NCBI GenBank assembly: GCA_018402345.1
Contig: JAGYIV010000010.1
Span: 558,001 to 622,000, forward strand
Origin: Terrimicrobiaceae bacterium
GTDB lineage: Bacteria > Verrucomicrobiota > Verrucomicrobiia > Chthoniobacterales > Terrimicrobiaceae
DNA length: 64,000 bases
Reading direction: 5' to 3'
Both the position numbers and the translations under genes were made by a program. Positions 3,225-3,407 of the stretch are shown here, piece by piece (positions within the stretch are counted from its first letter, which is position 1; every line of letters begins with the position of its first letter). A model generated the notes under the pieces. That model was not told the DNA's origin. It did no database searches and worked only from the letters and a program-made list of their open reading frames with translations.

Positions 3225-3407
3225 CCGCGTAAAATAAGCCGCCGAGGGAGAAGATCGTTTATTCCTTGAACCCAGGAGTTCGTGGGTCAGCTCGATCCTC
3301 CCCCGGCGCATGTTTCCAACTTGAACAGTTGCCTGAACCTACCGAGTTCGTATTGCAAGTCGAAGCGAAAACATCACAAACCAACCCTAAAACCGTTCCA
3401 TACACAA
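3225..3407 (+). ncRNA. Candidate IS110 bridge RNA
   Basis: Two successive stem-loops with matching design lie between the element's left end and the transposase start. First loop: paired arms CGCC/GGCG (3240-3243 with 3305-3308), GGGAG/CTCCC (3246-3250 with 3298-3302) and GATCG/CGATC (3253-3257 with 3293-3297). They enclose ATTCCT (3261-3266), a GAAC-CCAGGA-GTTC hairpin (3268-3281) and GGGTCAG (3284-3290). ATTCCT copies the left half of R1 and GGGTCAG is the reverse complement of its right half (CTGACCC), so this reads as a target-binding loop. Second loop: arms ACTTG/CAAGT (3319-3323 with 3356-3360), ACAGTTG-CCT (3325-3334), a GAAC-CTACCGA-GTTC hairpin (3335-3349), then GTATTGCAAG. ACAGTTG equals the element's own right terminus (4327-4333), as a donor loop requires. 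The exact RNA ends are not visible. Confidence 0.72.

What the first reader, a model, noticed from the sequence alone, without database searches (positions are those of the whole stretch)
3240..3362. IS110 5' end reads like a bridge RNA whose target loop spells the local R1 repeat
Seen directly: nested arms CGCC/GGCG, GGGAG/CTCCC and GATCG/CGATC enclose ATTCCT (3261-3266), a GAAC/GTTC hairpin and GGGTCAG (3284-3290). ATTCCT is identical to the left half of R1 up to the CT core, and GGGTCAG is the exact complement of the right half CTGACCC. A second loop of the same design (ACTTG/CAAGT arms, GAAC/GTTC hairpin) contains ACAGTTG, identical to the element's right terminus just before its CT core (4327-4333), and CAAG, complementary to the left terminus (CTTG at 3152-3155). 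IS110 elements are known to use such two-loop bridge RNAs to choose target and donor. The predicted target ATTCCTGACCC matches the R1 copies at 2776, 23234, 23465 and 33077, and the occupied site in all but one base.
Basis: partly seen in the sequence, partly recalled or inferred. Interest (0 to 1): 0.92.

Follow-up and report, generated by a model that had tools for sequence, protein, structure and literature searches.

The report
IS110 element with REP-targeting bridge RNA
A small jumping gene in a Verrucomicrobia-like bacterium carries, next to its transposase, an RNA sequence whose two loops spell the repeat it sits in and its own ends; related elements carry loop sequences that match their own different insertion sites, so this is a sound new example of the bridge-RNA system described in 2024, not a new kind of system.

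Summary
Window 3152-4335 is an IS110-group element: DEDD/serine recombinase at 3408-4325, best solved match IS621, with a predicted two-loop bridge RNA in its left end (about 3238-3362).

At fixed alignment columns, first-loop segments match each element's own flanks better than other elements' flanks: left 6.04 of 9 against 3.76 (n=26), right 7.00 of 9 against 3.91 (n=25), with 0 of 20,000 permutations reaching either value. The stems show compensatory changes. Two close relatives with nearly the same RNA carry different left guides that follow their own left flanks.

R1 is REP-like. It lies at an end of 11 of the 12 closest Y1/RAYT-type transposase matches, in inverted pairs where both ends were found. 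Of 17 genomic ATTCCTGACCC sites, 16 are R1. A second, different IS110-family element has also inserted in R1. IS621 itself targets REPs, so this is a new member of a known kind. RNA expression and activity were not tested.

The parts
3152..4335 (+). IS110 element including both CT cores (3152-3153 and 4334-4335)
   Evidence: Homology to L110/L003 ends at the left core and just past the right core; R1 halves on both sides make a full R1
3137..3153 (+). Left half of the interrupted R1: GTCAATAATTAATGC+CT
   Evidence: nearest intact R1 copies differ by 1 base
4334..4341 (+). Right half of the interrupted R1: CT+GACCCC
3238..3362 (+). Predicted bridge RNA body (target-binding loop plus donor-binding loop)
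   Evidence: transcript ends are not known
3258..3266 (+). Left target guide TTTATTCCT (8 of 9 to R1 TTAATTCCT; 7 of 9 to its own flank TTAATGCCT)
3268..3281 (+). Hairpin GAAC/GTTC between the two target guides
   Evidence: helix 3: 92.7% of cells paired, 3 of 4 pairs with changes on both sides
3282..3290 (+). Right target guide GTGGGTCAG (GGGTCAG pairs with CTGACCC of the right flank)
3325..3331 (+). Left donor guide ACAGTTG, identical to the right terminus 4327-4333
3356..3359 (+). Right donor guide CAAG, complementary to the left terminus CTTG 3152-3155
   Evidence: short match only
3156..3161 (+). Candidate -10 box TATCTT, completed in the circular form by a -35-like TTGCTA in the right end 17 nt away
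   Evidence: 22 of 26 elements have at least 4 of 6 of TTGACA at that spacing; motif only, no shuffled control was run
3408..4325 (+). IS110 recombinase, 305 aa
   Evidence: PF01548 and PF02371; IS621 8wt6 E 2e-28 with DEDD and Ser aligned
2778..2799 (+). Intact R1 copy (exact)
23236..23257 (+). Intact R1 copy (exact)
23467..23488 (+). Intact R1 copy (exact)
33079..33100 (+). Intact R1 copy (exact)
23927..25503 (-). Second, different IS110-family element (394-aa class) inserted in another R1 copy

Best explanation
It is an IS110-group insertion sequence of the IS621 type. Shown: a DEDD/Ser recombinase gene, a conserved two-loop RNA sequence in the left end, and first-loop segments that covary with the flanks across relatives. 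Inferred from the IS621 work: the excised circle rebuilds a promoter across the RE-LE junction and transcribes the bridge RNA; the first loop (LTG 3258-3266, RTG 3282-3290) pairs with the two strands of an R1 copy around its CT core; the second loop (LDG 3325-3331, RDG about 3356-3359) pairs with the element's own joined ends; the recombinase exchanges strands at CT. R1, the programmed target, is a REP-like repeat that belongs to a Y1/RAYT-type transposase, so the element parks in a dispersed repeat.
For: Both Pfam IS110 domains; IS621 is the best PDB match, E 2e-28, with D, E, D, D and Ser-Gly aligned (residue roles). Loop-flank covariation at fixed columns: left n=26 z 9.7, right n=25 z 11.5, 0 of 20,000 permutations each; an alignment-free version agrees, n=24 and n=23, 0 of 20,000 each. 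Guide swap in near-identical RNA: LTG differs at 4 of 7 (W/L003) and 5 of 7 (W/L019) non-core positions against 9 of 118 and 10 of 117 elsewhere, Fisher 0.002 and 0.0002. Donor side: donor guide and right terminus are identical in 27 of the 31 elements where both were read, including variants ACAACTG (L038), ATGGTTG (L043, L046), ATAGTCA (L027) and ATAGTCG (L028, L036, L065). 16 of 17 genomic ATTCCTGACCC sites are R1 copies. Junction promoter motif.
Against: Only one full copy in its own genome, so no second insertion of this very element tests the guide. Its own left flank matches the left guide at only 7 of 9, with one mismatch in the four bases next to the core side (ATGC against ATTC). The own flank is not the best match for 9 of 26 left and 7 of 25 right guides, and some match poorly at fixed columns: left L112 2, L052 3, L013 4, L029 4; right L112 1, L035 4. 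L112 is a misregister: its left flank matches 8 nt exactly without anchoring. The donor guide differs from the terminus in L007 and L016-L018. Across the 31 relatives the outer helix is paired in only 61.3% of cells and ACTTG/CAAGT in 47.7%; related sequences can beat such shuffles without any structure. No Rfam family reached its threshold there. L003 vs L019 alone gives p 0.07. 21 of the 60 elements with both gene ends were not tested. No expression or activity data.
Confidence: 0.95

Rival explanations
1. The folded left end is only an mRNA leader or translational control element of the transposase, and its matches to R1 are chance or a remnant of the target carried along.
For: It lies immediately upstream of the gene; a structured, regulated 5' leader is reported for the IS110-family ISPpu9 (title and abstract start in the listing). 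Single-element chance is small but not nil: 2 of 5000 shuffles.
Against: Loop-flank covariation in relatives and guide change inside otherwise conserved RNA are not expected of a leader. A leader role could coexist with the guide role.
Confidence: 0.03
2. Site choice is by the protein or by the palindrome's shape (hairpin recognition), and loop similarity is secondary.
For: R1 is an imperfect palindrome, and a second IS110-family element with a different recombinase also inserts in R1.
Against: Relatives of the same protein family sit in many unrelated flanks that their own loops match. L003 (85% identical protein) sits in a non-R1 left flank with a matching left guide.
Confidence: 0.02

Closest known systems
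IS621 of E. coli (IS110 group) and its bridge RNA (PMC11208160, PMC11208158)
   Same: Recombinase alignable over nearly its whole length with DEDD and catalytic Ser; RNA in the left end; target loop then donor loop; CT core; REP-type target; junction promoter motif. The likeness of the donor ends to IS621's is recalled, from no call.
   Different: Distant protein (E 2e-28); different host phylum; different target (R1, ATTCCTGACCC against ATCAGGCCTAC); no biochemical proof here.
ISEc21 (IS110) and the IS1111 elements ISPa11, ISKpn4 with seekRNAs (PMC11187229)
   Same: Transposase-linked RNA with segments matching both target strands; REP or attC targets; natural redirection by guide replacement (ISEc11/ISXne4) (passages).
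   Different: IS1111 elements carry the RNA downstream of tnp with the matches in reverse order; this element carries it upstream, as ISEc21 does.
ISPpu9 and ISPpu10, IS110 elements in P. putida REPs (PMC1525189)
   Same: Two differing IS110-family elements inserted at the same point of one REP (passages), as seen here for the finding's element and IS110-B in R1.
   Different: Different REP and host; the RNA guide was not known in 2006.
RAYT/REP units (PMC2817692)
   Same: A Y1_Tnp gene flanked by inverted copies of R1.
   Different: R1 copy number is low (26 places at up to 3 mismatches) against the usual >100 (abstract), and R1 shows no GTAG or CGTC tag of the kind named in PMC3733652 (title and passages).

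Membership tests
IS110 family, IS110 group | RuvC-like DEDD domain PF01548 plus PF02371 domain | tested here: met
   58.3 and 69.3 bits, both above Pfam cut-offs
IS110 family, IS110 group | Catalytic D-E-D-D and Ser-Gly | tested here: met
   All aligned to IS621 chain 8wt6_A; residue roles from PMC11208158 passages
IS110 family, IS110 group | Long left non-coding end with the RNA, short right end | tested here: met
   254 nt (3154-3407) left against 8 nt (4326-4333) right; rule from PMC11208160 section 12
Bridge RNA (IS621 type) | Two internal loops; first covaries with both target flanks | tested here: met
   n=26 left, n=25 right, 0 of 20,000 permutations each
Bridge RNA (IS621 type) | Second loop matches the element's own ends (donor) | tested here: met
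   LDG equals right terminus in 27 of 31 elements where both were read; exceptions L007, L016-L018. The RDG side (CAAG/CTTG) was not tested statistically
Bridge RNA (IS621 type) | Conserved secondary structure with covariation | tested here: met
   inner hairpins 92.7% and 95.0% paired, outer helix 61.3%, donor-loop closing helix 47.7%
Bridge RNA (IS621 type) | RNA is made from the RE-LE junction promoter | tested here: inconclusive
   Promoter-like motif at 17-nt spacing, 22 of 26 with at least 4 of 6 of TTGACA; no transcript data
Bridge RNA (IS621 type) | RNA binds the recombinase and reprograms insertion | not testable with these tools
   needs bench work
REP of a RAYT (for R1) | Inverted pair flanking a Y1_Tnp gene | tested here: met
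   R1 within 100 bp of an end of 11 of the 12 matches with at least 68% identity and of 0 of the other 20; inverted pairs at both ends in G000:C2, G015:C332 and G024:C62, several others being cut by contig ends or fragments
REP of a RAYT (for R1) | High copy number, usually more than 100 per genome | tested here: not met
   26 places at up to 3 mismatches, control 0

The most novel reading that the evidence does not exclude
Half-guide retargeting: in this small lineage (W, L003, L019) the right guide GGGTCAG stays fixed while the left guide is rewritten to fit each new left flank. This suggests that bridge RNAs switch targets one half at a time after insertion at sites matching only one half, perhaps by copying flank sequence into the loop. 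The host's REP-like repeats would then act as stepping stones.
Probability: 0.2. Interest if true: 0.55.

Novelty: new member of a known kind. Interest (0 to 1): 0.33.

Why it matters
It shows that raw sequence alone can reveal a bridge RNA and predict its target, and it places the IS621-like REP-targeting habit in a Verrucomicrobia genus against an unrelated REP-like repeat. Two different IS110-family elements converge on that repeat. The trio with one fixed and one changing guide gives a small natural series for asking how bridge RNAs acquire new targets.

Tried and rejected
Integron attC origin of R1: considered because R1 sits between toxin-antitoxin genes, and dropped once R1 was found as inverted ends of a Y1_Tnp gene; no integron integrase search was run.

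Bridge RNA of the second element (IS110-B): its 309-nt 3' non-coding strand contains GGGTCAG and ATGCCT (a match at least that long on both sides in 6 of 5000 shuffles; the right one alone in 1137 of 5000), but they lie about 165 nt apart and not in the order given for IS1111 elements, so it is left open. Its insertion into R1 does not depend on this: two copies have R1 left halves and all four have right flank CTGACCCC; left ends of the other two copies were not found.

A wider search for close relatives at E<=1e-75 found only the element itself in 387 genomes drawn from the phylum. No covariance model was built, no structure was predicted and no viral collection was scanned: the anchored alignment and the IS621 match already settled the question.

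Rows dropped: 80 loci plus L112, L113 and the window make 83 candidates; 60 had both gene ends; 39 of these had a recognised donor-loop motif; 31 were aligned (A1), leaving out L005 (5' end cut), L081 (no termini found), L016, L017, L048-L051 (near-identical copies); 26 had a left flank of at least 9 nt and 25 a right flank. The 21 elements without the motif (11 of Vibrio type, 2 cut at the 5' end, 8 others) were not tested for target-flank matching. Misregistered rows such as L112 were kept in the counts.

Full report
What is there. The window lies in a 3.14-Mb, 17-contig genome. The element's closest named relatives come from MAGs labelled Chthoniobacter flavus and Verrucomicrobia. At 3152-4335 is one complete insertion sequence. 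Its gene (3408-4325, 305 aa) has the two IS110-family domains. In the PDB it matches IS621 (8wt6, E 2e-28) and ISCro4 (9t56, E 1.3e-24) and nothing else at E<=0.001, with the four acidic residues and the Ser-Gly of the active site aligned; their roles were read in passages of PMC11208158. The left non-coding end is 254 nt and the right one 8 nt, the layout that PMC11208160 section 12 gives for the IS110 group. One full copy exists in the genome, plus a 71-bp right-end remnant on contig 8.

The observation. The named segments are at the stated coordinates. Reading the two flanks across the CT core gives GTCAATAATTAATGCCTGACCCC, a complete R1; the nearest intact copies differ from it by one base.

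The test. Candidates were 80 loci encoding relatives, two more from family genomes and the window; 60 had both gene ends, 39 a recognisable donor loop, 31 were aligned. With the guide columns fixed by the window's own loop, the left guide matches the element's own left flank at 6.04 of 9 positions against 3.76 for other elements' flanks (n=26), and the right guide at 7.00 against 3.91 (n=25). None of 20,000 permutations reached either value, and leaving out the core dinucleotide or the rows L003 and L062 changes nothing. The own flank was best or tied best for 17 of 26 left and 18 of 25 right guides. A test without fixed columns agrees (n=24 and 23). Flanks were set from termini motifs, not from the loops. 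Weak rows are listed in the Against line and stayed in the counts.

Closest relatives. L003 (85% identical protein) and L019 (57% and 71% in two segments) have an RNA 91% identical on average with the window's. The seven non-core bases of the left guide differ from the window's at 4 of 7 and 5 of 7 positions, against 9 of 118 and 10 of 117 elsewhere (Fisher 0.002 and 0.0002); L003 against L019 is 3 of 7 against 16 of 117, p 0.07. Each left guide fits its own left flank best (5, 6 and 5 of 7, against 2-4 for the others' flanks). The right guide GGGTCAG and the right flank CTGACCC are the same in all three. L003's contig equals G022:C97 (same length); G022 has no R1 copy at up to 3 mismatches, and L003's left guide does not fit R1 (3 of 7).

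Structure. RNAalifold on the 31 sequences predicts 19 pairs, 15 with at least one compensatory change. The hairpins between the guides are paired in 92.7% and 95.0% of cells, the outer helix in 61.3%, the donor-loop closing helix in 47.7%. Part of the shortfall may be alignment register.

Donor side and promoter. Donor guide and right terminus were both read in 31 of 60 elements and are identical in 27, including the variants ACAACTG (L038), ATGGTTG (L043, L046), ATAGTCA (L027) and ATAGTCG (L028, L036, L065, followed by TT rather than CT); they differ in L007 and L016-L018. Across the joined ends, 22 of 26 elements have at least 4 of 6 bases of TTGACA 17 nt before the TATCTT-like box; the window's element has TTGCTA and TATCTT. 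IS621 makes its RNA from such a junction promoter (passages).

What R1 is. GTCAAGAATTAATTCCTGACCC occurs at 26 places at up to 3 mismatches in the genome and at none read backwards, and in 13 of 26 genomes of the family, all of one genus. Two R1 copies in inverted orientation flank a Y1_Tnp gene (G000:C2:408860-409909). In 13 genomes searched with that protein there are 32 matches; 11 of the 12 with at least 68% identity have R1 within 100 bp of an end, 3 of them at both ends, and none of the other 20 does. That is the arrangement reported for RAYT genes (PMC2817692, abstract and passages), though R1's copy number is low. The pattern ATKCCTGACCC has 23 sites in the genome and 2 in the backwards control; 19 of the 23 are R1, and 16 of the 17 ATTCCTGACCC sites are, so the guide as written specifies R1. 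A second IS110-family element, four gene copies, keeps an R1 left half in two copies and has CTGACCCC on the right in all four.

What is known. IS621 inserts into REPs and its bridge RNA is characterised (PMC11208160: outline, sections 6, 7, 12 and passages). The IS110 family is the one most represented among REP-associated elements, and two different members share one insertion point in one REP (PMC1525189, passages). Natural redirection by guide change is described for ISEc11/ISXne4 (PMC11187229, passages). A library search for at least two of IS110, bridge RNA and Verrucomicrobia found 28 papers; none of the 15 listed bears a title on such an element. The element is therefore a new member of a known kind.

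Shown and inferred. Shown: gene family, boundaries, loop-flank and stem covariation, nature of R1. Inferred: transcription, RNA-protein binding, strand exchange and programmability. How the left guide is rewritten while the right one stays is not explained; the half-guide reading rests on three elements.

Noticed in passing
window 23927-25503 and L114:5895-7474: A second IS110-family element (394 aa, opposite orientation), four gene copies in the genome, inserted in R1 copies; its long 3' non-coding end suggests the IS1111-type layout.
   Followed up: partly
window 1996-2636 and L114:3459-4099: Near-identical MazE/PIN toxin-antitoxin pairs, in a stretch with many toxin-antitoxin-like ORFs and R1 copies between them.
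   Followed up: no
G000:C8:10370-10440 (L122:2370-2440): A 71-bp decayed right end of the same IS110 type (82% identity).
   Followed up: no
window 28639-28717, minus: Group II intron hit (RF00029, 53.3 bits).
   Followed up: no
L016, L017, L018 (one Dehalococcoidia chromosome): Three copies of one relative share a 23-nt left target (CTTAGCGTACGATYCTGCCCCCT) with different outer flanks, so that target may itself be a dispersed repeat.
   Followed up: no
G000:C2:409894-409915 (L117:4894-4915): The R1 copy at the 3' end of the Y1 transposase gene encodes its last residues and stop codon, so repeat and gene are physically fused.
   Followed up: partly
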